The notes under the pieces were generated by a model that did no database searches, was not told the DNA's origin, and saw nothing but the letters and a program-made list of their open reading frames with translations. The position numbers were made by a program, and so were the translations under genes. A stretch of DNA of 62,089 bases from Verrucomicrobiales bacterium (GTDB lineage: Bacteria > Verrucomicrobiota > Verrucomicrobiia > Limisphaerales > UBA11320): contig JAEUHE010000062.1 in NCBI GenBank assembly GCA_016793885.1, positions 1 to 62,089 on the forward strand, written 5' to 3'. Shown one piece after another: positions 1-10,972 of the stretch (its first letter is position 1; each line of letters starts with the position of its first letter).

Positions 1-471
1 GCCGAGAAGCTGAAGAATCGCAGCGGAGATGACGTGCGCGTGGGCCGGTTCGCCGGCTTCGATTTGTTTTTGCGTTCCGGTTTCATCGGCGACCCGGATT
101 TGGTGGTGCGCGGCAAAAACAGTTACGCCGCCAAAGTCACCGATACCGCGCTCGGCACGATTCGTTCACTGGAATCAACCGTGCAAGGATTTGAGGAGCG
201 CGGCGTGAAGCTCGAAGGCACGATTGCCGACGCGCAGAAGCGAGCCAAGGAACTCGAAGGCAAGGTCGGTGCCGCGTTTGATCGCGAGGAGCGTTATCAA
301 GAACTTACGCGCCGGCAAAACGAGATCACCGAGAAGCTTGACCTCACGAAGAACCAAGCGTCGAGTCAGGTCGAAGCAGCCTTGCCCGAGGAAACCGCTC
401 AAATAGCAACCGAAAATCACGCCATCAAGGACACCGCTCGGCCCACGCGGCGGTTGTCCATCCGCGTTTGA
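1..471 (+). CDS. C-terminal end of a large plasmid/phage-type helicase-methylase (partial)
   Basis: The frame is open from the first base of the window, so this is the 3' end of a longer gene. The visible 156 residues start A-E-K-L-K-N and run through a GFDLFLRSGF segment, a GKNSYAAKV segment and a charged coiled coil (about residues 50-130). This order (a FDL-like strand, a G-x-x-SY motif, then a long helical tail with repeated E-x-x-x-x-L) is what I know from the C-terminus of the very large SNF2-helicase/N6-methylase proteins of conjugative plasmids and phages. The catalytic domains would lie upstream of the window. It sits outside the tRNA-Gly element that starts at 689, so it may belong to a second, neighbouring mobile region. 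Family assignment is by resemblance only. Confidence 0.6.
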   Translation, partial: AEKLKNRSGDDVRVGRFAGFDLFLRSGFIGDPDLVVRGKNSYAAKVTDTALGTIRSLESTVQGFEERGVKLEGTIADAQKRAKELEGKVGAAFDREERYQELTRRQNEITEKLDLTKNQASSQVEAALPEETAQIATENHAIKDTARPTRRLSIRV

Positions 472-645
472 TTCCCTCCGGTCAAAGGTTGTTCCCGTCC
501 GCCAAAACCCAAATCTCGAAGGGCAGCGTTTTGAGTCGAAAATGGCCTGCTGCGGCCTCGCAAAAAACGATTCGCCCCAAGAAGTCGCTGATTTGGCAAT
601 AACAGCGGATAGGGGTAATCGGAAGGAGTAGTACAACTGAAATTT

Positions 646-665
646 GCTACACTAGCGCTACACTA
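646..665 (+). repeat. Direct repeat GCTACACTA x2 left of attL
   Basis: The 9-mer GCTACACTA occurs at 646-654 and 657-665, 11 bp apart, about 25 bp left of the left attachment site. The spacing matches that of the paired GTTAGCA motifs inside the element. It could be a recombinase arm site of an adjacent element or chance. Confidence 0.35.
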
Positions 666-688
666 ATTCGCAAGTTGTTGATTATCAG

Positions 689-718
689 TGGAGCGGGTGA
701 AGGGAATCGAACCCTCGT
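689..718. repeat. attL: 30-bp duplicate of the tRNA-Gly 3' end
   Basis: This is identical, over 30 bases, to 10286-10315, which encodes the 3' third of tRNA-Gly including CCA. It is preceded one base earlier by TTGATTATCA (678-687); the other copy has the matching palindromic TTGATAATCA at 10273-10282. Reading through it gives the peptide MERVKGIEPS, a known artefact of translating tRNA 3' ends, which falsely lengthens the integrase reading frame. Confidence 0.88.
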
Positions 719-790
719 ATAGATTCCAGGTAAGGCCTCAGTGCAATTCCTTAATAAATAGTCACATACAGACATCGTTGACACCGCTGG

Positions 791-810
791 ACGTTAGCAA
801 TACGTTAGCA
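791..810 (+). promoter_or_regulatory. Paired GTTAGCA motifs, left inner end (putative recombinase arm sites)
   Basis: ACGTTAGCA occurs at 791-799 and 802-810, immediately upstream of the integrase start. The same core GTTAGCA is paired near the right end (10237-10243 and 10250-10256). Pairs of short direct repeats at both inner ends of an element are typical of arm-type integrase or excisionase sites. They could also serve autoregulation of the integrase. Confidence 0.45.
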
Positions 811-813
811 GGC

Positions 814-1944
814 ATGGCCAGTATCCATCGCAGACCGGGTTCCCAGTATTACCACGCCGCTTGGAGAGACTCCTCAGGAAGGTTGAGGATGCAGAGCACC
901 AAGCTAACCGACCGAAGCGCTGCAACGGCCTTCGCCCTGGAGATTGAAAGGACCGAGAAGCTGGCTGGGGCCGGTTCCCTGGTTGAAGCCCAAGCGACGG
1001 CCATCTTGAAGGGTATCCTAGAGAGGGCCGGGGGCGGAGAAACGCTTAGAACCCGCATTACGAGCGAATGGCTGCGCTCCTGGATTGAAGGCAAGGAGGC
1101 GACCAAGTCCACTGCGACCGGCGTTCGTTACAAGCAGATCGTGGAGGAGTTCATCGAGCACCTTGGACACCGAGCCAAGAAGCCGCTCTCAGCAGTCACC
1201 ACCAGAGAGATTCAAGCATTCCTCACGAAGCGAACGGATTCGGGATGCTCTCCCACCACCGTTCAGCTGGACGGCAAGATTCTGAGAACCGCGTTTAACC
1301 GGGCACGGCGAGAAGGATTGATCACCACGAACCCAGCAGAGGCGGTGGAGCTGCCGGAAAGGGATTCAGTGGAGCGCGGAACCTTCACCCCTGCCGAGGT
1401 AAAGATCCTAATTAATGCGGCCAAGGGGGAATGGAAAACGATGATCTACTTGGCCTACTTCACCGGGGCGAGGCTCGGAGACTGCTGCCGGATGGAGTGG
1501 GAATCGGTTGATCTGGCCAAGGGACTTCTCACCTACAAGCAAACCAAGACGGGCAAGACGGTTCTCCTGCCGATCCATCCTCAGCTGCTGACCCACCTGG
1601 AGACCTTGGCCGTCTCAGACAAGGCAGAGAAGTTCGTCATGCCTGGAATGGCTAATAAGGGCCCAGGAGGACGCCATGGCTTGTCTGAAGGCTTCAAGCG
1701 CATCATGGAGAAGGCAGGTGTAGACTTTCAGCAAGTAGACGGTAGCGGCAAGCGCAAGATCTGCCGAAGAACATTTCACGCCCTTCGCCACAGCTTCACC
1801 TCTGTCCTAGCCAATGCTGACGTTGCTCCTGAATTGCGGATGAAGCTTACCGGACATTCATCCCAGTCGGCACATAAGACCTACTCCCACCATGACCTTG
1901 AGACGCTGCGCCGGGCCGTGGACAAGATGCCTCGGATTAGCTGA
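814..1944 (+). CDS. Tyrosine recombinase / phage-type integrase
   Basis: This 376-residue protein catalyses site-specific recombination between the tRNA-Gly att sites. An N-terminal Arm/SAM-like region (about 1-165) precedes a catalytic domain that holds the complete set of active residues: R220 (TGARLGDCCR), a Lys in KTGKTVLLP, H322-x-x-R325 (FHALRHS), H348 (LTGHSS) and nucleophile Y357 (KTYSHHD). I choose ATG 814 because the frame further upstream, to 688, merely reads through attL. Its position next to the left att site, on the end away from the intact tRNA, fits an element-encoded integrase. The GTTAGCA pair directly upstream may couple expression to recombinase binding. The family call is secure; directionality and target choice are inferred from the att sites. 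Confidence 0.95.
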   Translation: MASIHRRPGSQYYHAAWRDSSGRLRMQSTKLTDRSAATAFALEIERTEKLAGAGSLVEAQATAILKGILERAGGGETLRTRITSEWLRSWIEGKEATKSTATGVRYKQIVEEFIEHLGHRAKKPLSAVTTREIQAFLTKRTDSGCSPTTVQLDGKILRTAFNRARREGLITTNPAEAVELPERDSVERGTFTPAEVKILINAAKGEWKTMIYLAYFTGARLGDCCRMEWESVDLAKGLLTYKQTKTGKTVLLPIHPQLLTHLETLAVSDKAEKFVMPGMANKGPGGRHGLSEGFKRIMEKAGVDFQQVDGSGKRKICRRTFHALRHSFTSVLANADVAPELRMKLTGHSSQSAHKTYSHHDLETLRRAVDKMPRIS

Positions 1945-1952
1945 CAAATGCT

Positions 1953-2504
1953 ATGGAAGACAGGCTACCAGACAGACCCACAGTGCAGGAGTTAGCGCTC
2001 CTCGCCGCCACGTTGAAGGCCTCTAAAACTGCAAACGAAATAGAGGATATAGCTTCTGAGGCTTTGACGCTGTGGAGGAAGTGTCGGAAATGCCTGGAGG
2101 AAGACATGTGGGAGCAGGAAGTCCGCGAAATGGAGGAGGAGGACGCACGACGCGACGCGGTTTTCCTCCCGCGTCAGGACTGTCCCCCCATAAAGCGTGA
2201 CCACTTTCTGAAACGGGTCCTTCCTCAGTGCCAAGGACGGACCGCCGAACTGGCTAGAATCGCAAAAGCCTATGTTCGTTGGGATCTAACCAGAAGACTG
2301 GGAGAAACTCCAACCGAGATCGAAATCAGCGAGGGCTATGCGAAATGGCCTGACATGAATAGTTTTCAGGAAGCAAACGAGCAGGCCCTGTTTTTTAAAT
2401 ACTGGCATAGAGGCGTTTTCTTGAAGGCGAGTAAGCGAAGGGCCAGGCCCACGCCCAAAACTTCGCCTCAAAAAAAACTCACCAAAAAAACATTTGGAAG
2501 TTAA
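1953..2504 (+). CDS. Hypothetical protein downstream of integrase
   Basis: This 183-residue protein starts 8 bases after the integrase stop, so it is probably co-transcribed. I do not recognise a family. It is highly charged, with an acidic helical stretch around residues 45-75 (several consecutive Glu/Asp) and a Lys/Arg-rich C-terminus (about 155-183) that could bind nucleic acid. A central W-x-x-x-R-R-L-G-E-T segment could be part of a helical DNA-binding fold. There is no signal peptide or membrane segment. Codon usage resembles the rest of the element and is less GC-rich than the chromosomal genes. It may assist recombination or regulate the integrase, but that rests only on position. Confidence 0.6.
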   Translation: MEDRLPDRPTVQELALLAATLKASKTANEIEDIASEALTLWRKCRKCLEEDMWEQEVREMEEEDARRDAVFLPRQDCPPIKRDHFLKRVLPQCQGRTAELARIAKAYVRWDLTRRLGETPTEIEISEGYAKWPDMNSFQEANEQALFFKYWHRGVFLKASKRRARPTPKTSPQKKLTKKTFGS

Positions 2505-2695
2505 ATCTAGCTGCCGATTCTGCGTAATGCCTACAGCGGCATGTAGAATGAATTTCCCTTAGATGTTAGATGCCGGAGGGTCGCTGTGTTTTGCTGAGAG
2601 GAGTATGTAGTTTGCGGTCTTAGCTCTTCGAAAAGCCAGATTATCCACATGCTATCCATGTGTCGTGAAGTCATTGGACTTCGCTGAACAAACAC

Positions 2696-3064
2696 ATGAC
2701 AAAAGCACAAAAGACCAACTGGCAGTCGGTAGTTGAGAGCAACGATCAAACCGAATGCGAACACATCACAACCTCAATTCTTGCGCGGAAGATTCCGGAA
2801 CCTCCCAAGCGAGTCTCCCTATCGCCATCTGCAAGTGAACTTCAACGGGAGCGAGATAAAGGAATTCCCATTTGGATCCGCGCACCCAAGAGCGGACCGG
2901 AACACTACTCGGGCTTTACACGGTCAAAGCTGTACGAGTTAGCGACCCATGGGCGAATTCGTTCAGTAAGCATTAGGGAACCGGGAAGGATGAAGGGAGT
3001 AAGACTCTTTCACTTGGACAGCATCCTGCGATACGTGGAGGGTTGTGAAATGACGGTTAACTAA
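2696..3064 (+). CDS. Excisionase/AlpA-like helix-turn-helix protein
   Basis: The 122-residue protein has a disordered, polar N-terminus (1-60) and a winged HTH-like segment at about 68-117 (FTRSKLYELATHGRI, then V-R-L-F-H-L-D-S-I-L-R-Y). The pattern of a Ser/Lys-x-x-x-Tyr-x-x-x-x-x-G-x-I helix followed by a strand and a closing 'L(D)SIxRY' helix is that of excisionase/HTH_17 proteins. In integrative elements these direct excision or repress/activate replication genes. It is 16 bases from the small gene at 3081 and heads the run of replication genes, so a role as regulator of that cassette is equally likely. It has an unusually long N-terminal extension compared with typical 60-80 residue excisionases. 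Confidence 0.65.
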   Translation: MTKAQKTNWQSVVESNDQTECEHITTSILARKIPEPPKRVSLSPSASELQRERDKGIPIWIRAPKSGPEHYSGFTRSKLYELATHGRIRSVSIREPGRMKGVRLFHLDSILRYVEGCEMTVN

Positions 3065-3080
3065 TGCCTTTTTGATGCAT

Positions 3081-3239
3081 ATGAGCACCATCTCAACACA
3101 AAGAAAGGCCCCGACCGCTGTTAAGCAAGCCGGGGGTGATACGGGTGATGTCCTACCCTATTGCCAGACTTACCAACTTGCAAGCAAACCCCGCCTAGAC
3201 GATAGAATTCTCGGATTGAAGATCGGGGGTGATAGATGA
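3081..3239 (+). CDS. Small 52-residue protein translationally coupled to the primase-like gene
   Basis: ATG 3081 (or in-frame ATG 3075) opens a 52-residue frame: MSTISTQRKAPTAV at the start, I-L-G-L-K-I-G-G-D-R at the end. Its TGA at 3237-3239 overlaps the ATG of the next gene (3236) as ATGA, and the same type of overlap joins the next two genes. It fills the only gap in an otherwise gap-free run. No family is recognised; it has no membrane segment. The decamer GGGGGTGATA appears twice in it (3132-3141 and 3225-3234), the second serving as a likely ribosome-binding site for the primase gene. The coupling makes me think it is a real gene, though it could be a leader that only delivers ribosomes. 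Confidence 0.5.
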   Translation: MSTISTQRKAPTAVKQAGGDTGDVLPYCQTYQLASKPRLDDRILGLKIGGDR

Positions 3240-4258
3240 CACCTCAGGAACGAGCTTCCCGTTACCTAGCAGCAACACCTCCTGCCATCAGCGGGAGCGG
3301 TGGCCACAATCAAACCTACAGCGTTGCCATCTCTTTAGTGCAGGGCTTCGGACTCACTATCACGGAATCCCTCCCGATCCTTCAGCAATGGAATTCCAAG
3401 TGTCTTCCTCCCTGGAGCGAAGCCGATCTGATTCACAAGCTTCGCGATGCTGAATCCAAGCAAGTGGGCAAACCTCGGGGCTGGCTCCTGGAGAATTCTG
3501 CTTCCAAGGTTACCCTGCCCGCCAGACCAACCAGCCCAGTGGCCAACCAGCCATTGCCCAGAGAGAAAAAGCCATCCAAGGAAGGATGGACTATCGGAAC
3601 CGATGAACAGTTAGGAAGACTCTCGAAAGCTAGACCTTACTCGTTAGAAGGCCTTCAACTGGCAACTACCCGGGGGCTTCTCCTCTTTGGCTCCTACGGG
3701 GGCTACGAGTCCTACGCCGTGACCGACAAGAGCGATTACGTCTTAGAGGCGAGAAGAGTAGATCAAAAGCCTTACCCTGCAACGTTCCACCTGGAAGAGA
3801 GAAAGAGCCATGGAATTGCTGGAACATGGAAGCAATGGCCGGTCGGGATTCTTGAAGCTGCGAAACATGATACAGTCGTCTTAGTGGAGGGCATCCCTGA
3901 CTTTCTAGAAGCGCACTATTTGGCTCAGTGGGAACAAGCCGAGCATTTCTCCAACACTTCCATGCGTTGCGCTATCGTCGCTATGCTAAGCGCTTGCCCT
4001 TATATCACAGAAGAAGCCTTGCCATACTTCCGAGGAAAGAGGATTCGGCTGTTCCCTCATGCAGATAAAGAAGGGGTCAATGGAGCCGCTAAATGGGTGA
4101 AGCAACTTAGGGCTGCGGGAGCGGCCAAGGTCGATCTCTTCGACTTTGGGGCTTATACCAAGCGGGACGATTCCCCTGTGAAAGATCTCTATGACTTTCG
4201 AGACCTACACCCCCGCCACTATAAAGCTGACTCGGAGCTGTGGAGGATCCTGCCATGA
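3236..4258 (+). CDS. PriCT/TOPRIM primase-like replication protein
   Basis: This is a 340-residue protein. Residues 1-75 resemble the PriCT (primase C-terminal-like) helical domain: R-A-S-R-Y-L-A, then G-x-G-G-H-N-x-T-Y-x-V-A and P-P-W-S-E-A-D-L-I-H-K-L-R-D-A. A TOPRIM-like fold follows at about 205-310, with a glutamate motif (VVLVEGIPDFLEA) and an acidic H-A-D-K-E-G motif after RIRLFP, typical of plasmid and phage primases that bind Mg and RNA primers. The ATG overlaps the upstream small gene and its TGA overlaps the helicase ATG, so the three are coupled. No separate AEP-type catalytic domain is visible, so it may be only a primase accessory or a TOPRIM-type primase. It probably primes replication of the excised element. 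Confidence 0.75.
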   Translation: MTPQERASRYLAATPPAISGSGGHNQTYSVAISLVQGFGLTITESLPILQQWNSKCLPPWSEADLIHKLRDAESKQVGKPRGWLLENSASKVTLPARPTSPVANQPLPREKKPSKEGWTIGTDEQLGRLSKARPYSLEGLQLATTRGLLLFGSYGGYESYAVTDKSDYVLEARRVDQKPYPATFHLEERKSHGIAGTWKQWPVGILEAAKHDTVVLVEGIPDFLEAHYLAQWEQAEHFSNTSMRCAIVAMLSACPYITEEALPYFRGKRIRLFPHADKEGVNGAAKWVKQLRAAGAAKVDLFDFGAYTKRDDSPVKDLYDFRDLHPRHYKADSELWRILP

Positions 4259-5316
4259 TCAAGGAAGAGACATCCCAACTGGCAATTGTCCAAAGCGGAA
4301 TCGCTAGTTTGGCACAAGGCCTTCCCAGCCTTGACCACAACCCGTCCACTGCAAGAGAAGTGGAGGAACTAACGCGGATGATGGGCCAGAGTGCTATGAA
4401 TCCAACCTCGCTCGCTCAACTGGAAATCCCCAAGCGTGAACCAATCATTGGCGAGTGGTTCCGAGAGGGAGACCTAGGATTTGTTTTTGCGCCGCGTGGC
4501 TTAGGCAAAACCTGGCTCAGCATGTTAATGGCTCGGAAGTGTGCGGATGGCCACGGTTCATGCGGGCTCTGGACAGTACACAGGACCAAAAAAGTCCTCT
4601 ACGTTGACGGTGAGATGCCGCTCGATTCGATGTTGGAGAGAGATAGGTTAATTGCTTCCCTGCCCTCGGAGAATCTCACATTCCTCCAGCACGAAGCCTT
4701 CTTTCACCAGCATGGAAGGGTTCTTAATCTCAGCGACCCAACGACTCAGCAGGCGCTTCTCGCGCATTGTCAGGCCAACGGTGTTGAGATCCTGATCCTG
4801 GACAATCTCAGCTGTCTGTTCTCCGGCGTTAAGGAGAATGATGCTGATGCTTGGGAGCTTGTCCTCCCTTGGCTGCTAACGCTGCGACGGAACCGGATTG
4901 CGGTGGTGATTGTCGCCCACGCCGGAAGAAACGGTCAAATGCGTGGAACCTCCCGCCGGGAGGATGCTGCTTTTTGGGTCATCCAGCTTAGCGAGGTGGC
5001 GGATGCAGCATCCCCTAAGACCGGGGCTCGTTTCGTCTCCAAGTTCATCAAGAATCGGAACGGGACCGAGGAAGCATGCCCAAGCTACCAGTGGGAGTTT
5101 ACGACAAAGCCAACATTGGACGAGGTGGAAGTCCGGTGTGCCATCGTCTCCCCGCTAGACCAACTTGTGGGATGGGTTAGAGACGGGTTAAGCAGCGCAA
5201 GCGACATAGCGGTGGAGATGGGAGTCAGTAAGGGACAGGTTAGCAAATTGGCCAAGCAAGCGATCGAGCGAGGATTAATCCGGAAGGAGGCCCGCGAGTA
5301 CCTCCCCTGCCCTTGA
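4255..5316 (+). CDS. RepA-like hexameric replicative helicase (AAA_25 type)
   Basis: The likely start is ATG 4255, which overlaps the upstream TGA and follows a good GGAGG at 4242-4246; a GTG at 4240 is also in frame but lacks that spacing. The 353-residue protein is a RecA-fold ATPase with a Walker A (FAPRGLGKTWLS), a DGEMP motif (residues about 119-124), a Walker B (VEILILDNLS) and a sensor-like IVAHAGRNG. The final 50 residues form a winged-helix (A-S-D-I-A-V-E-M-G-V-S-K-G-Q-V-S-K-L-A) that could bind the origin. RepA-type proteins of broad-host plasmids and satellites unwind the origin as hexamers. The TGGAAACGA cluster lies directly downstream and is the natural candidate target. Confidence 0.85.
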   Translation: MIKEETSQLAIVQSGIASLAQGLPSLDHNPSTAREVEELTRMMGQSAMNPTSLAQLEIPKREPIIGEWFREGDLGFVFAPRGLGKTWLSMLMARKCADGHGSCGLWTVHRTKKVLYVDGEMPLDSMLERDRLIASLPSENLTFLQHEAFFHQHGRVLNLSDPTTQQALLAHCQANGVEILILDNLSCLFSGVKENDADAWELVLPWLLTLRRNRIAVVIVAHAGRNGQMRGTSRREDAAFWVIQLSEVADAASPKTGARFVSKFIKNRNGTEEACPSYQWEFTTKPTLDEVEVRCAIVSPLDQLVGWVRDGLSSASDIAVEMGVSKGQVSKLAKQAIERGLIRKEAREYLPCP

Positions 5317-5327
5317 ATACGCTTCGC

Positions 5328-5507
5328 CTCGTTTCTTGTTTCCCTCCCTAGGCGTGGAAACGGGAAACGAATGGAAACGAAACTGGAAACGAAACCGTTT
5401 CCAGGGTTTCAAAACCTCCAATCGTTGGTCTTTTTCAATACTCCTGGAAACGAGCGTAAAAAAGGCTTTGGAAACGAAAGGCAGATTCCGAGGCTTCCTC
5501 GTTTCCA
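5328..5507. repeat. Iteron-like cluster (TGGAAACGA) after the helicase gene, putative origin
   Basis: TGGAAACG(A) or its complement occurs at 5355, 5372, 5384, 5396 (reverse), 5445, 5469 and 5499 (reverse). Degenerate copies (GGGAAACGA at 5362-5370; CGTTTC near 5330) bring the total to about nine in 180 bp. Spacing between the first four is 12-17 bp, close to a helical turn or 1.5 turns. The clustering next to a primase/helicase operon, with an A/T-rich stretch (5430-5465), is what an iteron origin looks like. An alternative is an operator for the replication operon. The whole gene-free stretch is 5317-5724; I see nothing else in 5510-5724. Confidence 0.65.
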
Positions 5508-5724
5508 GAGGTGCAATCGTAAGAGATTCCCGGAGGTGAGGCTGTGAGGCGTTTTGACCGCCACCTCAACCCAAAGTAGCCCAGGTAGGACATGACGCGT
5601 CCTAGGCCTTACCACGGAGCAAATTAAAGGGGTTTAGCAGGCAGTGCCAAACCAGGTGAGGGGAAACCTTCTATTCCTGCAACTTCCGCGCGCTTTGGGT
5701 GTAGCACTTTACCTCCTAGACGGG

Positions 5725-6183
5725 TTAATACCCCAACTGCTTAGCAGCCCAAACCATTAACTTCATGTCCTTGTTTAGCCCATACGTTCCGGGAACCTTC
5801 GCCAATGCCTCTTTCTGCCTACGCGCTCTAGCCGGGGCACCCTGCTTCCTCCACCTTCTCAGTTGAGGCGGTTGAGGTGGCCAGCCATGGAGCTTGGCTT
5901 TCTCCCTCTTGAGCGCCCAGCTTTGCCACAAGTCGGGATGCTGAGCTTTCAAGCCGAGGTATTCTGTCCAAGAGATTTTACAAGCCGCTGCAACAATGCC
6001 CTCCTTGTTGCGATTGATCGGCTCTTCCAAGGGTGTTTGCCTATAAAGCTTCCAACATAACAACCGAACTCTTCGCATTCCGGAAGTGCGCCATTTCTGT
6101 TTGAGAGCCGGATTATTCTCCTCCGAGGTTAACGCTTCGGAAACATCCATAAGTCTGAGAGGCTTCACAAATACAGGGAACAA
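5725..6183 (-). CDS. Small basic protein of unknown function
   Basis: This 152-residue frame is on the strand opposite to the replication genes and separated from them by the iteron-like cluster. An internal ATG at 6150 gives MDVSEALTSEEN, an equally good start. It is rich in Lys, Arg and Trp (nine Trp, such as W-x-x-W-A-L-K-R-E-K and W-P-P-Q-P-P-Q-L-R-R-W-R), suggesting nucleic-acid binding. I do not recognise a family. A Pro-rich hinge near residues 100-107 separates two helical halves. It could be an element regulator or a chance frame; size and lack of a competing frame favour a gene. Confidence 0.4.
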   Translation of the reverse strand: MFPVFVKPLRLMDVSEALTSEENNPALKQKWRTSGMRRVRLLCWKLYRQTPLEEPINRNKEGIVAAACKISWTEYLGLKAQHPDLWQSWALKREKAKLHGWPPQPPQLRRWRKQGAPARARRQKEALAKVPGTYGLNKDMKLMVWAAKQLGY

Positions 6184-6246
6184 TGTGGCTAGAATAAAAA
6201 GATGCAGAATGTCAGGCCGTTTCCGAGGATCTGGCGTACAGGCTAA

Positions 6247-6879
6247 CTAGCGTTGTGGGTCAAAGAGGCGGCGCAGCCAACTTGCGAAGACATCGACTTC
6301 AGGCACATCCGTATTTAGAAACCTGGCCCTGATCGCCGTCCCAAATGGTCTACCCGGCTCCTCCTGCCAAGCTAGCCAGGTATGGATTAATGCTTTCGGT
6401 CTATCCAGATCACTGAACCGAACCTCCTCGTTAGGGATGCCAACCAGGCAGGACTTCGCGTAATCCCACAAACGCGCGGACGGAACCATGAAACGCAGGA
6501 AATCTTCGAGAATCCCTTTGGAAGAATTGTCGGGCATCAGCCATACCCCTACGCGAGGGAGATAGGATCGTTGAGGGGGTAGCAAAATTGTTCCACTCAA
6601 ATCAGGTTCGTTCGGCACCATATCGAATCCCGCCCCTTCCAGCCTAGCTTTCAACGCCGCCCAACTTGCAGCCGTACTGGTATCGCAATCGATGATCACG
6701 CCTAGGGAATCAATGTCGCTTCCCTTTAGAAAAACTGGCAGGACATTCAGCAATCTCTCAATTCCTTGTTGCTCCTTGATGGCGGGAGTCGTGATGCCTT
6801 TTCGCACACAAATGGCGTCGAGAACATTGACTTCATCCTTGCCCTCGACGAGCAGCACATGTTTGCTTTGCATTCTCAT
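6247..6879 (-). CDS. TOPRIM (DUF3226-like) nuclease subunit of ATPase/TOPRIM pair
   Basis: This 210-residue protein opens with a TOPRIM glutamate motif (KHVLLVEGKDEVNVLDA, residues 6-22) and continues with a DxD motif in LGVIIDCDTSTAASW (residues about 59-73). This is the metal-binding pair of OLD-type nucleases. The middle segment with TILLPPQ, R-V-G-V-W-L-M-P-D-N and G-I-L-E-D-F-L is the pattern I associate with DUF3226. Its ATG overlaps the TGA of the upstream ATPase by four bases, so translation is coupled and the two products probably form one complex. Together they add up to about 592 residues, the size of a single-chain OLD nuclease. Anti-phage function is inferred from this resemblance and from location on a mobile element. 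Confidence 0.8.
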   Translation of the reverse strand: MRMQSKHVLLVEGKDEVNVLDAICVRKGITTPAIKEQQGIERLLNVLPVFLKGSDIDSLGVIIDCDTSTAASWAALKARLEGAGFDMVPNEPDLSGTILLPPQRSYLPRVGVWLMPDNSSKGILEDFLRFMVPSARLWDYAKSCLVGIPNEEVRFSDLDRPKALIHTWLAWQEEPGRPFGTAIRARFLNTDVPEVDVFASWLRRLFDPQR

Positions 6880-8024
6880 CGCACCTCCACGCTTTCACGG
6901 GTGACGATGGCAAGTTCGTCCTCACGGAAAATCGTCGGGACAATGATGTCATCATACCTCGCAAGCCGGATGAGCGAACCTTCCTCGGGATCAGCTGCTG
7001 CAGCTTCCTGAAAAGTCCTCACGGCGTCCCAGCTGTGGGTAGTAGCGAACACCTGGATATTGAGAGCCGTGGACAAGCGAAAAATCGCCTTCCAGACGTC
7101 GAGCTGCACAGTATGGTGCATACCATTCTCGAACTCATCAATGAGAAGCAGACCACCTTTAGCATTCACCAATGAAAGCGCGATACTAAATAGCCTATTG
7201 AGCCCGTCTCCGTAGGATCGAAGCGGGATCGGACGCGGGAAACGGGAGGACTTAACAATAGCGGTTCTATGCGTCCTATTACCTTCGACGCCCACCATCG
7301 ATACCGCCATTATATCCGGCGAAATCAGCTGGAGAGCATCTACGATGTCGTTCTCAAGGTCCGACAGAGCAATCTTGTCCCAGAGGTGACCAACGTTTGA
7401 AGTGCGTTCGTTTCCATACGAACTGACAAAAGCGCAAGGAAGACCTACTTCCTCAGGTACCTCCAAGCGCCAAATCCGATTTCGAAGGTAAGACCGTTTC
7501 AAAAGATCGACCGGAATCACCCGACGTGCCCGGCCGGTCCGCTCCGTAACTAGGGCGGCAATCAAACCATCCGGAGGCATCAGGCCTTCGGATGGGAAAA
7601 GCTCAGGCTGTTGAGGAACGAATTTCTTGCTTCCGTCCTCCTGACGTTCCTCCGTAAAAAATTTAACCGAAAGCGAAAGCCCCAACGCGCGGTCATTTCC
7701 TGGGGCTTCCAAAACGATGGGCTCACGGATATCTGCTACCTGGGGAAATCCCGTGAAAAGACTTCCTATCTGTAGGAGTCCTTCTGATTCTGCACCTCTG
7801 GTTGAGTCTTCAGACTCGCTGTAGTCCTCTTCTCGATTCCTGGCGATCGCGTTAAGCATAGAAGGAGCGGCATCCGAGGCCATGATGCGTAGCGCTTCTA
7901 GGAGAGACGATTTCCCAGTGTTATTCCGTCCCGTTATCAGGTTGACCCTCGCCAGGTTCTCAAGTTCGAGCCGTTTCAAGGAGCGGAAATTCTCGATTCT
8001 TAGAGACGAGATGATCAATTTCAT
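6876..8024 (-). CDS. AAA/ABC-type ATPase (OLD/PARIS-like) of a putative defence pair
   Basis: The 382-residue protein begins MKLIISSLRIENFRSLKR, the usual SMC/RecF-like opening, with Walker A TGRNNTGKSS at 31-40. A C-terminal half carries a Walker B (GGLLLIDEFENGMHH) and an H-switch (VFATTHSWDAV). There is no TOPRIM domain on this chain; it is supplied by the overlapping downstream gene. Split ATPase plus TOPRIM pairs are known from PARIS (AriA/AriB, there with DUF4435) and single-chain versions from OLD and Gabija; the partner here is different. The ~268 bp upstream (8025-8292) would hold the promoter. In defence systems the ATPase senses a phage product and releases or activates the nuclease; this role is inferred. 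Confidence 0.8.
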   Translation of the reverse strand: MKLIISSLRIENFRSLKRLELENLARVNLITGRNNTGKSSLLEALRIMASDAAPSMLNAIARNREEDYSESEDSTRGAESEGLLQIGSLFTGFPQVADIREPIVLEAPGNDRALGLSLSVKFFTEERQEDGSKKFVPQQPELFPSEGLMPPDGLIAALVTERTGRARRVIPVDLLKRSYLRNRIWRLEVPEEVGLPCAFVSSYGNERTSNVGHLWDKIALSDLENDIVDALQLISPDIMAVSMVGVEGNRTHRTAIVKSSRFPRPIPLRSYGDGLNRLFSIALSLVNAKGGLLLIDEFENGMHHTVQLDVWKAIFRLSTALNIQVFATTHSWDAVRTFQEAAAADPEEGSLIRLARYDDIIVPTIFREDELAIVTRESVEVR

Positions 8025-8292
8025 ATTCTTCTTACGATGCCTTATTTAGCCGAAGCTCGCGGGAGCCTACCAAAAGCGCTCCGGAGACAAAGCAAACACA
8101 TGCAGGGAGCCTTCGGCAACATCTTTGGCGGAACTTATATCAATAGCCTGGTGCTTTTAACAGTTTACTCGCACATTTTCGGATATTCACTCATGAACGC
8201 CTACCCAGACAGTTGAAAGCTTGGGCGGTTCCACCACACTTCCGAGTTGCTAGATTGCTCTGACATCGGCTTTCTTTGCTGCAGGAGTCCGT

Positions 8293-8490
8293 ATGAAAAC
8301 CCCCAAGAAATCGTTCGCTATATATGTTCTATCGAAGGAGTTGAGAGATGCGTTTAAGCGATTGAAACACCCCAGGACGGAGGAGGACCAAAAGCTTGTA
8401 GAGGCGTGCGCCCAGGTTCGAAAACATCTGAACCGCTTGTGGTCGGATCGGCAACAAAAGGTTGAGCAGTGGGACAACAAACGGCGGTGA
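8293..8490 (+). CDS. Small 65-residue protein
   Basis: A 65-residue frame opposite in strand to the ATPase pair, starting MKTPKKSFAIYV. It is highly charged, with two helical stretches (K-E-L-R-D-A-F-K-R-L-K and L-V-E-A-C-A-Q-V-R-K-H-L-N-R-L-W), compatible with a small helical dimer or coiled coil. No family is recognised and no signal peptide or membrane segment is present. It lies between the defence pair and the exported cargo genes; it could be a regulator, antitoxin-like protein or a chance frame. Confidence 0.4.
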   Translation: MKTPKKSFAIYVLSKELRDAFKRLKHPRTEEDQKLVEACAQVRKHLNRLWSDRQQKVEQWDNKRR

Positions 8491-8523
8491 ACGTCCCCGC
8501 TTATTCACTCAACCAGATCCATC

Positions 8524-9492
8524 TCAAGGTTCTCTACTGGCTCGGATTCTATAGAACAGAAAGCTTCCCTCGGCTTCAAGGGATCGCGAAATGCGTCCGC
8601 CATCGCCAAGAATCTGTCCTAGAAGGACGTTCCAGACCTTTGTGTCATTGGATCCTTCAATCGCGTAGAAGATCAAAGGCTCCGAGGTAAACTCGATGGT
8701 GATGGATTTCTTAACATCAAGGACCGGAGCCTTCGGTGGAGCTGGCTGGTCTGGGAGAGTTGGTGTCTCAGGGTCTGGGGCTGTTAGAAATGGTGTAAAC
8801 GTGACATAGCCCGGACTGTTGAACGTGTCATTCCGATCGATAATCCGATCTTCTATGACCTGGCTATTGGTAGTGGTCCAGTAATTCAGGGAAATATCGA
8901 AGGTGCCAGAACGGATCACAGTCATGTTGCCTACCAAAAACGAATTGTATCTAATCAGCGAGGTAGCGGGGGGCCAATTAAACATTACTGTCTCTGGTGG
9001 AGCACCTGGTGGAAAAGTAAACAAGTTATTCACCAGAGTGGTGTTGCCGATGTCCCAGTTGACTTGCCCGAGGAAGCGGTTACGCATGAGGATATTGGTT
9101 TTCCCCCGGGTGCTAAAAGCGGTAGCTTGGAAGGTGCAGTCATACGCCTCGAAGCGCGCTGCATCCCTCCCACTTTGGATCCATCCGTTGGTCATGATCA
9201 GATACCGGACGAGAATCTGGTTACCCGATCGATAGGCATCGATTCCGCCTCCGATAAACACAACCGGCTTATGCTCGGTTCCCACGATCACCACCTTGCT
9301 ATTCTCGTAAGGCACAAGAAACTGGCTTGATGAGTTCACAACGACTCCGGCCTCAATGATTAGAGTATCGTTCGGAGGAATCTCGAAAGTCTTGGCAAGG
9401 TTAATCGGCGACTGAGCAGCGGTCCATCGGATCTCGGCTGCATTGCAGCTAGCGGCGCAGAGGAAAGTAATGAGGGCTAGGGTCGCTTTCAT
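8524..9492 (-). CDS. Exported right-handed beta-helix protein
   Basis: This 322-residue protein has a clear signal peptide (MKATLALITFLCAASCNA, cleaved before AEIRW). Residues about 45-215 show short repeated beta strands with Asn/Ile ladders (NQILVRYLIMTNGW, N-I-L-M-R-N-R-F, N-T-T-L-V-N-N-L-F, S-L-I-R-Y-N-S-F), as in NosD/pectate-lyase-like right-handed helices. A Pro-rich linker (about 235-255) leads to a C-terminal module ending FLFYRIRAS, the same type as in several large exported proteins of this chromosome. The start overlaps the upstream gene's stop by four bases (ATGA), so it is the second gene of a two-gene unit. It is cargo of the tRNA-Gly element. Substrate or partner cannot be told. 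Confidence 0.7.
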   Translation of the reverse strand: MKATLALITFLCAASCNAAEIRWTAAQSPINLAKTFEIPPNDTLIIEAGVVVNSSSQFLVPYENSKVVIVGTEHKPVVFIGGGIDAYRSGNQILVRYLIMTNGWIQSGRDAARFEAYDCTFQATAFSTRGKTNILMRNRFLGQVNWDIGNTTLVNNLFTFPPGAPPETVMFNWPPATSLIRYNSFLVGNMTVIRSGTFDISLNYWTTTNSQVIEDRIIDRNDTFNSPGYVTFTPFLTAPDPETPTLPDQPAPPKAPVLDVKKSITIEFTSEPLIFYAIEGSNDTKVWNVLLGQILGDGGRISRSLEAEGSFLFYRIRASREP

Positions 9493-10106
9493 GGTTGAGG
9501 TAAACTTGATTTCTGCAACCGAATCCTAAAGAACTGAGCAACTTCACCCGATTTCAATCCATTGGTGGTCGCCACCCAGCTTGAAAGGTCAGTGCTAACT
9601 TCCATCGTCACGTTCATGGCATTCTCTGGTCCTGGAAGTACAATGGAAGTCTTCTGCGGATTGTCGGGGCCGGGAATGATCTTGTAGGTAAATAGAGTAT
9701 CCGCCCCAATAAAGTGAAGCCTGCCGGGTCCGGAAACCGTCCCGTAAGGGCCCAATGCGAATGTCGAAAGTCCTTCTCCAAACCGATCCAAGCCCCCGGT
9801 CCAGCGCCATACCTGGTAGAATCGTCCTTCCCGCTCCAAAGTAACCTCGATGATAGGTGGCTGTAGTCCCTGCGAGGCTTCTTTCGGGAGGCCCGCTTGG
9901 GATGCCTGAACCATCATGAAGGTTTGGCCGGCTAGAAGTTCTATTGTGTTCGTGGTACTGCCAACACGGTCTGGGCTAGAAACTCCTTTCGAGGTGACAG
10001 TGCTGAAGTATTGCTCCTCCGCCTGCAAGATGGGAAGGAGGCCGACCAACAAACCAGAAACCACGAGGGCAATCAGGTAATACGCTCTCCAAGGTTTAAG
10101 CCTCAT
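9489..10106 (-). CDS. Exported protein, first gene of the beta-helix pair
   Basis: A 205-residue protein with an N-terminal hydrophobic segment (WRAYYLIALVVSGLLVGLL, residues 6-24) that serves as signal peptide or anchor. The rest is beta-rich, with L-L-A-G-Q-T-F-M-M-V-Q-A and Y-K-I-I-P-G-P segments. It ends in a module (MEVSTDLSSWVATTNGLKSG, then FFRIRL) that I recognise as the short C-terminal beta module shared by many verrucomicrobial exported proteins. It is coupled to the beta-helix gene by an ATGA overlap. I cannot assign a function; the pair could be a cell-surface modification carried by the element. Confidence 0.6.
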   Translation of the reverse strand: MRLKPWRAYYLIALVVSGLLVGLLPILQAEEQYFSTVTSKGVSSPDRVGSTTNTIELLAGQTFMMVQASQAGLPKEASQGLQPPIIEVTLEREGRFYQVWRWTGGLDRFGEGLSTFALGPYGTVSGPGRLHFIGADTLFTYKIIPGPDNPQKTSIVLPGPENAMNVTMEVSTDLSSWVATTNGLKSGEVAQFFRIRLQKSSLPQP

Positions 10107-10236
10107 AGGTGATGCGAGTTTGGATAGTTTTTTTGGTTTGAAAAACCCGTCGACCGAATCTCAGCCTCCATGCTCGCGTGCCCCCCCGCCCCTACGTCCT
10201 TGAACATCCTGGAACCTCATTGAAATCTAGGGATTT

Positions 10237-10256
10237 GTTAGCAGCCCACGTTAGCA
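10237..10256 (+). promoter_or_regulatory. Paired GTTAGCA motifs, right inner end (putative recombinase arm sites)
   Basis: GTTAGCA occurs at 10237-10243 and 10250-10256, in the same orientation as the left pair at 793-799 and 804-810. Only one further copy was noticed inside the element (about 5239, within the helicase gene). The enrichment at both ends points to integrase/excisionase arm sites. Confidence 0.45.
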
Positions 10257-10285
10257 TGATTTTCACAAATCCTTGATAATCAACT

Positions 10286-10315
10286 TGGAGCGGGTGAAGG
10301 GAATCGAACCCTCGT
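10286..10315. repeat. attR: 30-bp direct repeat within the tRNA-Gly gene
   Basis: It is identical to 689-718 and covers the CCA, discriminator, acceptor 3' strand and T-arm of the tRNA gene on the minus strand. It marks the tRNA-proximal end of the integrated element. Confidence 0.88.
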
Positions 10316-10359
10316 CTCAAGCTTGGGAAGCTCACATTCTACCATTGAACCACACCCGC
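10286..10359 (-). tRNA. tRNA-Gly (CCC anticodon), CCA encoded
   Basis: On the minus strand the gene reads GCGGGTG at the acceptor 5' end, D-arm GTTC-AATGGTA-GAAT, anticodon loop TTCCCAA closed by TGAGC/GCTTG, T-arm with GTTCGAT, acceptor CACCCGC, discriminator T and encoded CCA: 74 nt in all. The CCC anticodon matches the glyU-type tRNA-Gly. It is intact and is the integration target of the 689-10315 element, which lies at its 3' side. Confidence 0.95.
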
Positions 10360-10972
10360 TTCCTGAAGACGCGTTGGTGTTAACAAGTTCGGCCGCACTT
10401 GGCAACTGAATGTTTCCCCGTTTTCGGATGCCGTCCTGCCCTCAGGGACCGTGGAAAAATCAATCCGGGTTTTGCTGGAGGAATTCTAACATTCTGGCGA
10501 GGCACGAGAGAGGAGCATACCCACAGCGGTCTGTGACGAGCGAGTAACGAAGCCAGAATCTGAGAAGGACCCAGCCCCGCGGGGCGGGGCGGTGCCAGGC
10601 CAACTGCGTCGTTGCTCGTCAGTTACAGCCCCACTGCGGGGGGATGCGCCATTCTCGCGCCTAGCATCTGGCCTGGCAGCGCTCGCGCCAAAACCCGAAT
10701 TTATTTTTGCACGGTCCCTTACTCGCCCCCGGGATGCGGTGCATTTTTAACCCGGTCTTCACAGCCAACACCTTTTCACCCGCGATCTACCGGTCCAAGG
10801 ACACCTTGAGTCCAATGACAATGCAAAGGTCACAATGATCATCGGAACGTCACTTGTCCAAAAAACAACGCACTTGTTAGAGAGGGTGGAGCCGAACAGA
10901 CCGTCGGCTGACCCAATAAAATAACAACCTCTCCAACCAACTAAACCAAGTGTTCGTCGACAAGGATGCATC
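10360..10972. repeat. Gene-free stretch with a 10-bp perfect hairpin arm pair
   Basis: I see no convincing gene here. TGCCAGGCCA at 10593-10602 is complementary to TGGCCTGGCA at 10669-10678, with a GC-rich loop of 66 bases containing further partial pairing (GCTCGTCAGTTACAG against CTGTGACGAGCGAGTAACG at about 10532-10550). The neighbouring CCCCGCGGGGCGGGG (about 10573) adds another self-complementary block. The whole (about 10480-10680) looks like a folded repeat of REP type. The short frame at 10612-10809 reads through it and is rejected as a gene. The last 150 bases would hold the promoter of the next gene. Confidence 0.4.

What the first reader, a model, noticed from the sequence alone, without database searches (positions are those of the whole stretch)
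689..10315. Compact tRNA-Gly(CCC)-integrated, self-replication-capable satellite-like element with a defence pair
The exact 30-bp repeat of the tRNA 3' end defines both ends. Between them lie an integrase, an excisionase-like protein, a primase/helicase cassette, iteron-like repeats and an ATPase/TOPRIM pair, but no capsid or conjugation genes. Elements with this plan are known in Enterobacteria (P4) and Gram-positives (PICI); I am not aware of a described one in Verrucomicrobiota.
Basis: partly seen in the sequence, partly recalled or inferred. Interest (0 to 1): 0.8.

Follow-up and report, generated by a model that had tools for sequence, protein, structure and literature searches.

The report
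Satellite-like tRNA-integrated element in Verrucomicrobiota
A 9.6-kb mobile DNA element sits in a glycine tRNA gene of an uncultured Verrucomicrobiota bacterium and carries its own integrase, copying genes and a probable anti-phage gene pair but no virus shell genes; it belongs to a large, apparently undescribed group of such elements in this bacterial order and is laid out like a minimal phage satellite.

Summary
The element is real and its ends are right. The exact 30-bp repeat is confirmed (689-718, 10286-10315). Both ends carry the same integrase arm sites (GTTAGCA pairs at 793/804 and 10237/10250), tying them to one 9597-bp unit. Nine other complete, sequence-related units (4.2-16.3 kb) were found in tRNA-Gly, -Cys, -Phe and -Glu genes of the same order, sharing the layout att, integrase, then usually a xis/AlpA-like gene, varied replication genes and cargo, then tRNA. 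This element has no capsid, packaging or relaxase gene. Its integrase clade shares one operator (TTGACA, then paired GTTAGCA, then ATG) and includes a true temperate phage from IMG/VR. The Rep-helicase has a matching iteron array that changes when the helicase diverges. Two corrections: the element is probably the tRNA-proximal unit of a tandem array (its left flank is the end of another element whose integrase end lies on contig C2); and the layout matches PICMI satellites of Vibrio better than P4 or PICI, though two PICMI criteria (fis site, DUF3987/DUF5906 primase) are not met. Helper, excision and defence activity are inferred, not shown. No clean empty site was available. Verdict: a new verrucomicrobial group of a known kind.

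The parts
1..688 (.). Left flank: right end of a second element ('B'), not plain chromosome
   Evidence: ORF 34-471 is 39% identical to a protein end next to tRNA-Gly(CCC) in congener G041, which matches PHROG DarB-like antirestriction. Paired arm-like sites GCTACACT at 646 and 657 match those of the att+integrase end on G000:C2:85195-86301.
689..718 (.). att core, displaced copy (30 bp of tRNA-Gly 3' end)
   Evidence: exact repeat
778..813 (+). Integrase promoter/operator: TTGACA (778) plus two integrase arm sites GTTAGCA at 793 and 804, directly before int ATG
   Evidence: conserved upstream of the integrases of this clade; coordinates
814..1944 (+). Tyrosine integrase
   Evidence: PF00589, phrog_1; clade of 25 including a temperate phage integrase, support 100/99
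1953..2504 (+). Integrase-contiguous gene of unknown function (position of PICMI iolg/icg)
   Evidence: starts 8 nt after int; its homologue in L130/L097 (about 32%) overlaps int by ATGA
2696..3064 (+). AlpA/Xis-like winged-HTH protein
   Evidence: HTH_17 E=0.024 here, best 3e-5 in the family, 6 of 11 members; helix-strand-strand-helix model; 26-member cluster that follows int
3236..4258 (+). TOPRIM primase
   Evidence: model matches T7 gp4 primase and B. subtilis DnaG, Foldseek prob 1.00; relatives in 68 of 293 genomes
4255..5316 (+). RepA-like AAA_25 helicase with C-terminal wHTH
   Evidence: AAA_25 2.3e-21, MarR_2 8e-7
5317..5530 (.). Iteron array, 8 x GGAAACG/CGTTTCC; putative replication origin
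   Evidence: the same iteron lies after four 53-56% identical helicases
5725..6183 (-). Unknown ORF, 152 aa
   Evidence: no family match; no relative in the loci collected
6247..6879 (-). DUF3226 TOPRIM protein (PDC-M38B)
   Evidence: PF11536 1e-61; PADLOC PDC-M38B 9.5e-47
6876..8024 (-). OLD-like AAA_15 ATPase (PDC-M38A)
   Evidence: PADLOC PDC-M38A 3.2e-91; overlaps the TOPRIM gene by 4 bp
8293..8490 (+). Small ORF, 65 aa, unknown
8524..9492 (-). Cargo protein with apparent signal peptide, 322 aa
   Evidence: N-terminus read by eye; no family match
9489..10106 (-). Cargo protein with apparent signal peptide, 205 aa, overlapping the previous gene
   Evidence: N-terminus read by eye; no family match
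10237..10256 (+). Right-end integrase arm sites, GTTAGCA x2 (10237, 10250)
   Evidence: same motif as at the left end
10286..10315 (.). att core inside intact tRNA-Gly
10286..10359 (-). tRNA-Gly(CCC), regenerated target gene
   Evidence: ARAGORN

Best explanation
Window 689-10285 is one integrated copy of a small 'hitcher' element laid out like a PICMI-type phage satellite. The integrase recombines the tRNA-Gly(CCC) 3' end through a 30-bp core and GTTAGCA arm sites at both ends. In the integrated state the integrase probably represses its own promoter, because its arm sites overlap the -10 region. The AlpA/Xis-like protein, with the int-contiguous gene product, would turn integration into excision. 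The circle would replicate from the GGAAACGA iterons through the AAA_25 Rep-helicase and its TOPRIM primase. Lacking both virion and conjugation genes, it most likely spreads inside the particles of a helper phage of the same hosts. The AAA_15/DUF3226 pair, placed between the replication genes and the tRNA, would protect the host, and so the element, from other phages. Shown by sequence: ends, layout, shared integrase clade with a temperate phage, Rep-iteron pairing. Inferred: excision, repression, replication, packaging, defence.
For: Exact ends and matching arm sites. Ten complete units with one architecture at five kinds of tRNA gene. Conserved operator upstream of the clade's integrases; the GTTAGCA integrases form one clade of 25 at 100/99 support. 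That clade includes the integrase of IMG/VR contig G293, which has terminase, portal, head protease and tape measure genes, so phages of these hosts use the same recombination system. Primase relatives lie in an IMG/VR phage with terminase, portal and major head protein. Iterons co-vary with the helicase: 7, 7, 4 and 6 copies after four 53-56% relatives, different repeats after more diverged ones. PICMI comparison: core int, alpA and prim, an int-overlapping or contiguous gene, defence genes after prim; the same order here and ATGA-type overlaps in 5 of 24 clade members. No virion or relaxase genes in the window element.
Against: No helper, packaging signal, circular junction or particle was seen. 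The primase and helicase have no match in 50,697 GenBank phages. The window's own AlpA-like protein is only a weak HTH_17 match and its model found no good structural match. The replication genes are equally typical of integrated plasmids. No empty site was available in close relatives.
Confidence: 0.5

Rival explanations
1. An integrative mobilizable element or integrating plasmid: it excises and replicates from iterons like a plasmid and is moved by conjugation in trans through an unrecognised oriT.
For: AAA_25 Rep, primase and iterons look like a plasmid replicon. Hitchers carrying only an oriT are known and hard to detect (PMC11389934). Replication modules differ between relatives.
Against: No relaxase or mobilisation family in the window element or among the best-listed families of the relatives. 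Helicase and primase have only one weak partial match each among 72,556 plasmids. The integrase clade includes a phage.
Confidence: 0.27
2. A complete but largely immobile genomic island: integrase-borne cargo (defence pair and secreted proteins) that moves rarely, by general transduction or transformation, without a dedicated helper.
For: Much of the DNA is cargo; several relatives carry varied secreted or defence cargo.
Against: Intact integrase, operator, arm sites, Rep and iterons kept across genera; recurrent use of different tRNA genes.
Confidence: 0.13
3. A decayed prophage that has lost its structural genes.
For: A full temperate phage with the same integrase class exists; primase relatives occur in phages.
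Against: Intact reading frames throughout and an exact att pair; nine other complete units of 4-16 kb without recognised structural genes look like a recurrent state, not decay. The only virion-like PHROG hits listed in relatives come from one protein, probably through repeat domains.
Confidence: 0.05
4. The true mobile unit is larger: A and the left neighbour B move together as one composite island.
For: The left flank is element DNA with its own arm sites; the B integrase end lies on another contig of the genome.
Against: A has its own matched ends and integrase; A and B use different arm motifs and distant integrases (about 22% identical). Composite excision is possible but not needed.
Confidence: 0.05

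Closest known systems
PICMI (phage-inducible chromosomal minimalist islands, Vibrionaceae; PMC10803314)
   Same: Small int-led island between direct repeats; gene overlapping or contiguous with int; AlpA-like HTH gene; primase; defence genes after the primase; no capsid or remodelling genes.
   Different: Integrates in tRNA genes, not at fis; the window unit uses a TOPRIM primase with an AAA_25 helicase rather than DUF3987/DUF5906 (some relatives do use DUF3987, e.g. L044); helper unknown; different phylum.
P4-like satellites (PMC8628076)
   Same: Integrase, AlpA-like regulator, replication protein, variable cargo including defence.
   Different: No Psu, Sid, delta, epsilon or alpha-type replicase match.
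PICI / cfPICI
   Same: Compact integrase-led island with replication genes.
   Different: No terminase small subunit, capsid or morphogenesis genes matched; no stl-type regulator recognised.
Tycheposons and other marine integrase-led satellites (named in PMC11389934)
   Same: Integrase-led hitchers with cargo, proposed to move by particles (from memory).
   Different: Other phylum; gene homology not tested.
PARIS (AriA/AriB) and split OLD-type ATPase-TOPRIM systems; PADLOC PDC-M38
   Same: Separate ATPase and TOPRIM genes, carried on a satellite-like element.
   Different: TOPRIM partner is DUF3226 and scores as PDC-M38B, not AriB; PDC-M38 is only a predicted defence candidate.

Membership tests
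PICMI | Integrase (PF00589) | tested here: met
   1.2e-19
PICMI | AlpA (PF05930 or PF12728) | tested here: inconclusive
   PF12728 E=0.024, below cut-off in the window; 3e-5 at best in the family, 6 of 11 members
PICMI | Primase of type DUF3987 or DUF5906 | tested here: not met
   Window has TOPRIM plus AAA_25. Relatives: DUF3987 in 2 proteins, DUF5906 in 1
PICMI | Integration next to fis | tested here: not met
   Integrated in tRNA-Gly(CCC)
PICMI | Induced and packaged by a helper phage | not testable with these tools
   no experimental or read data
P4-like satellite | Psu, Sid, delta, epsilon, alpha | tested here: not met
   no Pfam or PHROG match in the window element's main proteins; Sid has no Pfam model and was covered only by PHROGs
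PICI / cfPICI | Packaging (TerS) or capsid-forming genes | tested here: not met
Integrative mobilizable element | Relaxase or oriT | tested here: inconclusive
   no relaxase family; oriT cannot be recognised here
tRNA-integrated genomic island | Regenerated tRNA plus displaced 3' fragment at the other end, integrase inside | tested here: met
PDC-M38 candidate defence pair | Adjacent M38A ATPase and M38B TOPRIM | tested here: met
   3.2e-91 and 9.5e-47, overlapping genes
PDC-M38 candidate defence pair | Demonstrated anti-phage activity | not testable with these tools
   no paper in the library names DUF3226 or PDC-M38
PARIS | AriA plus AriB | tested here: not met
   ATPase matches AriA weakly (2e-23); the TOPRIM matches only PDC-M38B models

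The most novel reading that the evidence does not exclude
A large clade of phage satellites native to Verrucomicrobiota: int, int-contiguous gene, xis/AlpA, interchangeable replicon, defence or secreted cargo. They share one integrase class and operator with temperate phages of the same hosts, stack in tandem at tRNA genes, and are carried by a substantial share of genomes of the order.
Probability: 0.42. Interest if true: 0.72.

Novelty: new variant of a known kind. Interest (0 to 1): 0.55.

Why it matters
Phage satellites have been described mainly in a few well-studied bacterial groups. If these elements are satellites, a major environmental phylum would gain its first satellite group. The reusable signatures found here (paired GTTAGCA arms before int, a tRNA 3' repeat, Rep-linked iterons) would let others find more of them in fragmentary metagenome bins. 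They also mark where defence genes of these uncultured bacteria are likely to be stored and exchanged, including a DUF3226 pair and, in a relative, a CRISPR adaptation module.

Tried and rejected
- Empty site: the tRNA-Gly(CCC) flanks seen in congeners G041 and G083 carry element-type arm repeats, and the left chromosomal flank on C2 is not conserved in the genus. G088 and G050 may be empty, but only their right flanks agree, so no claim is made.
- Single-sequence searches of IMG/VR found no integrase or primase relative and one weak helicase relative; alignments did better.
- GenBank phages and plasmids: essentially nothing for primase and helicase, only about 25-27% identical integrases.
- L208 (IMG/VR) has the identical 30-bp Gly-CCC core, GTTAGCA arms on one side and another integrase class on the other, with a terminase gene about 4 kb away. 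I could not show that the terminase belongs to the GTTAGCA-armed unit, because the contig's far end carries an unrelated integrase. Not used as helper evidence.
- Virion-like PHROG hits among relatives trace to one protein, L098:4532-6316, and are treated as repeat-domain matches.
- Primase family by sequence alone: no PDB hit; settled by structure.
- The xis structure search gave only weak generic winged-helix matches.
Full report
WHAT WAS CHECKED. The window is the whole of contig C62 of an 8.7-Mb, 274-contig genome. An exact 30-bp direct repeat lies at 689-718 and 10286-10315. The right copy is the 3' part of an intact tRNA-Gly(CCC) at 10286-10359 on the minus strand. In 97 genomes of the order, searched with this tRNA, the own genome shows one full copy plus short 3' fragments and a more diverged Gly tRNA. 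The unit is 9597 bp and has 52.6% GC, against 60.0% in the chromosome to its right.

GENES. Integrase (PF00589, phrog_1), probably starting at ATG 814. A 183-aa protein beginning 8 nt after int. A winged-HTH protein at 2696-3064: HTH_17 is weak here (0.024) but reaches 3e-5 in its family, and the model shows helix-strand-strand-helix. A 340-aa primase whose model matches T7 gp4 primase and B. subtilis DnaG. An AAA_25 helicase with a C-terminal winged HTH. An iteron array at 5317-5530 with eight GGAAACG/CGTTTCC copies, where the most frequent 7-mer in 500 shuffles never exceeded four. On the other strand, a 152-aa unknown, a DUF3226 TOPRIM protein and an AAA_15 ATPase that score as PADLOC PDC-M38B and PDC-M38A, and two overlapping cargo genes with apparent signal peptides (read by eye). 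No virion, terminase or relaxase family was found. DUF3226 is sparse in the order, over the cut-off in 4 of 97 genomes, as expected of accessory cargo.

ENDS AND CONTROL. Two GTTAGCA sites at 793 and 804 lie directly before the int ATG, behind a TTGACA at 778. Two more lie at 10237 and 10250, just inside the right att. The motif occurs elsewhere in the 62-kb window only at 5239 and 15916 on this strand and at 4874 and 9593 on the other, never as a close pair. These are most simply integrase arm sites. At the left end they overlap the expected -10 position, so the integrase is likely to repress itself (inference).

RELATIVES. Scanning 293 genomes of the order, primase relatives occur in 68 (many hits cover only the N-terminal domain), integrases at E <= 1e-60 in 61, and the helicase in 15, seven of them strong including the window's own genome. 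Named records are nearly all Verrucomicrobiota, several labelled Limisphaerales or subdivision 3; a few bins carry other labels. Ten complete units, including this one, could be delimited with a tRNA 3' repeat: Gly-CCC 9.6 kb (window), Gly-TCC 7.0 and 16.3 kb, Cys 5.4 and 5.5 kb, Phe 9.5, 6.3 and 5.9 kb, Glu 4.2 and 10.8 kb. In all of them int lies at the end away from the tRNA and reads towards it. The closest in gene content, L044, has int 57%, xis 57% and primase 42% identical, at tRNA-Gly(TCC).

SHARED OPERATOR AND CLADE. The paired GTTAGCA-type operator precedes the integrases of this clade. In a tree of 69 integrases, all 20 with exact TTAGCA pairs, four near variants or unscored rows and one phage integrase form a clade of 25 with support 100/99. 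The phage is IMG/VR contig G293, 36.7 kb, with terminase, portal, head protease and tape measure genes. Primase relatives (41%) also occur in an IMG/VR phage, L210, with terminase, portal and major head protein. So the recombination and priming modules are shared with phages of the same kind of host, while isolated phages and plasmids in GenBank and PLSDB hold almost nothing similar.

REPLICATION MODULES. After four helicases 53-56% identical to this one, the same iteron occurs 7, 7, 4 and 6 times. After more diverged helicases it is absent or replaced by other repeats. Two DUF3987-helicase units share a different repeat. Rep and iteron therefore change together, which supports an origin bound by this helicase family. 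Other units use DnaB-like helicases, DnaC/DnaD-like loaders, primase-helicases or DUF3987 proteins: the integrase/xis frame is kept and the replicon is exchanged.

TANDEM ARRAY. The left flank (1-688) is not plain chromosome. It encodes the end of a protein related to one beside tRNA-Gly(CCC) in congener G041, which matches a DarB-like antirestriction family. It also ends in a pair of GCTACACT sites at 646 and 657. The same arm motif precedes an integrase at the very end of contig C2 of this genome, right after another 30-bp copy of the att core. With only one intact tRNA-Gly(CCC), the simplest reading is chromosome, att, element B, att (689), element A, tRNA. The join is across an assembly gap and is inferred.

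HOT SPOT. In 27 genomes of the order with enough flank, 14 carry a close direct-repeat pair of 8 or more bp next to the tRNA-Gly(CCC) 3' end, against 0.7 expected from shuffles. Several are clear arm-type pairs; a few (for example L276, L282) may be low-complexity. The site is thus widely used by several integrase classes, which also explains why no clean empty site was found in the genus.

COMPARISON WITH KNOWN SYSTEMS. PICMI satellites need int, alpA and primase; many also have a gene overlapping or touching int, essential for excision in the prototype, and they keep defence genes between the primase and the integration target. The units here have the same order. In the clade 5 of 24 have a 4-bp overlap of int with the next gene; the window has an 8-nt gap, and its int-contiguous protein is homologous to one that does overlap. 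The window unit fails two PICMI criteria (fis site; DUF3987/DUF5906 primase), so it is not filed as a PICMI, only as working like one. P4 and PICI marker genes are absent.

LIMITS. Excision, replication, packaging and defence were not observed. Satellite status is a reasoned preference over an integrating plasmid or oriT-type element, about two to one. The genomes are mostly metagenome bins. The TIGER/Islander resource may hold some of these islands as unnamed coordinates.

Noticed in passing
L097:2798-6180 (G276:C83; same contig as L130, CAINLR010000083.1): A relative of this element (16.3 kb, tRNA-Gly(TCC), GTTAGCA class) carries a CARF/NE0113 protein, Cas1, Cas2 and a 6-repeat CRISPR array (about 37-nt repeats, 75-78 nt period) without interference genes, next to type I restriction-modification genes: a mobile CRISPR adaptation module.
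   Followed up: partly
tRNA-Gly(CCC) loci L265-L294: Half of the examined genomes of the order have paired short direct repeats beside this tRNA, in several motif classes (TTGCACTT, ATTCTTACTTT, GTTAGCAG, TTATTCTCACTT and others): a hot spot shared by several integrase classes.
   Followed up: partly
L208:9700-10010 (IMG/VR 3300041809_003289): A virus-collection contig holds the identical 30-bp Gly-CCC core between a GTTAGCA-armed end and an integrase of another class: a tandem arrangement outside this genome.
   Followed up: partly
window 10444-10719: 31-nt inverted repeat (90%) framing a ~275-bp segment that recurs at 88-92% identity in the own genome (C12) and in congener G083: a REP- or MITE-like repeat.
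   Followed up: no
complete units in L101, L106, L108; also L150: A 300-317-aa protein family of unknown function encoded directly after int, often overlapping it by ATGA, in elements at tRNA-Phe, -Glu and -Cys; a candidate excision helper.
   Followed up: partly
int upstream regions, L127-L149 and window: The likely promoter -10 lies only about 8-10 nt before the int ATG, which suggests a leaderless int transcript across the clade.
   Followed up: no
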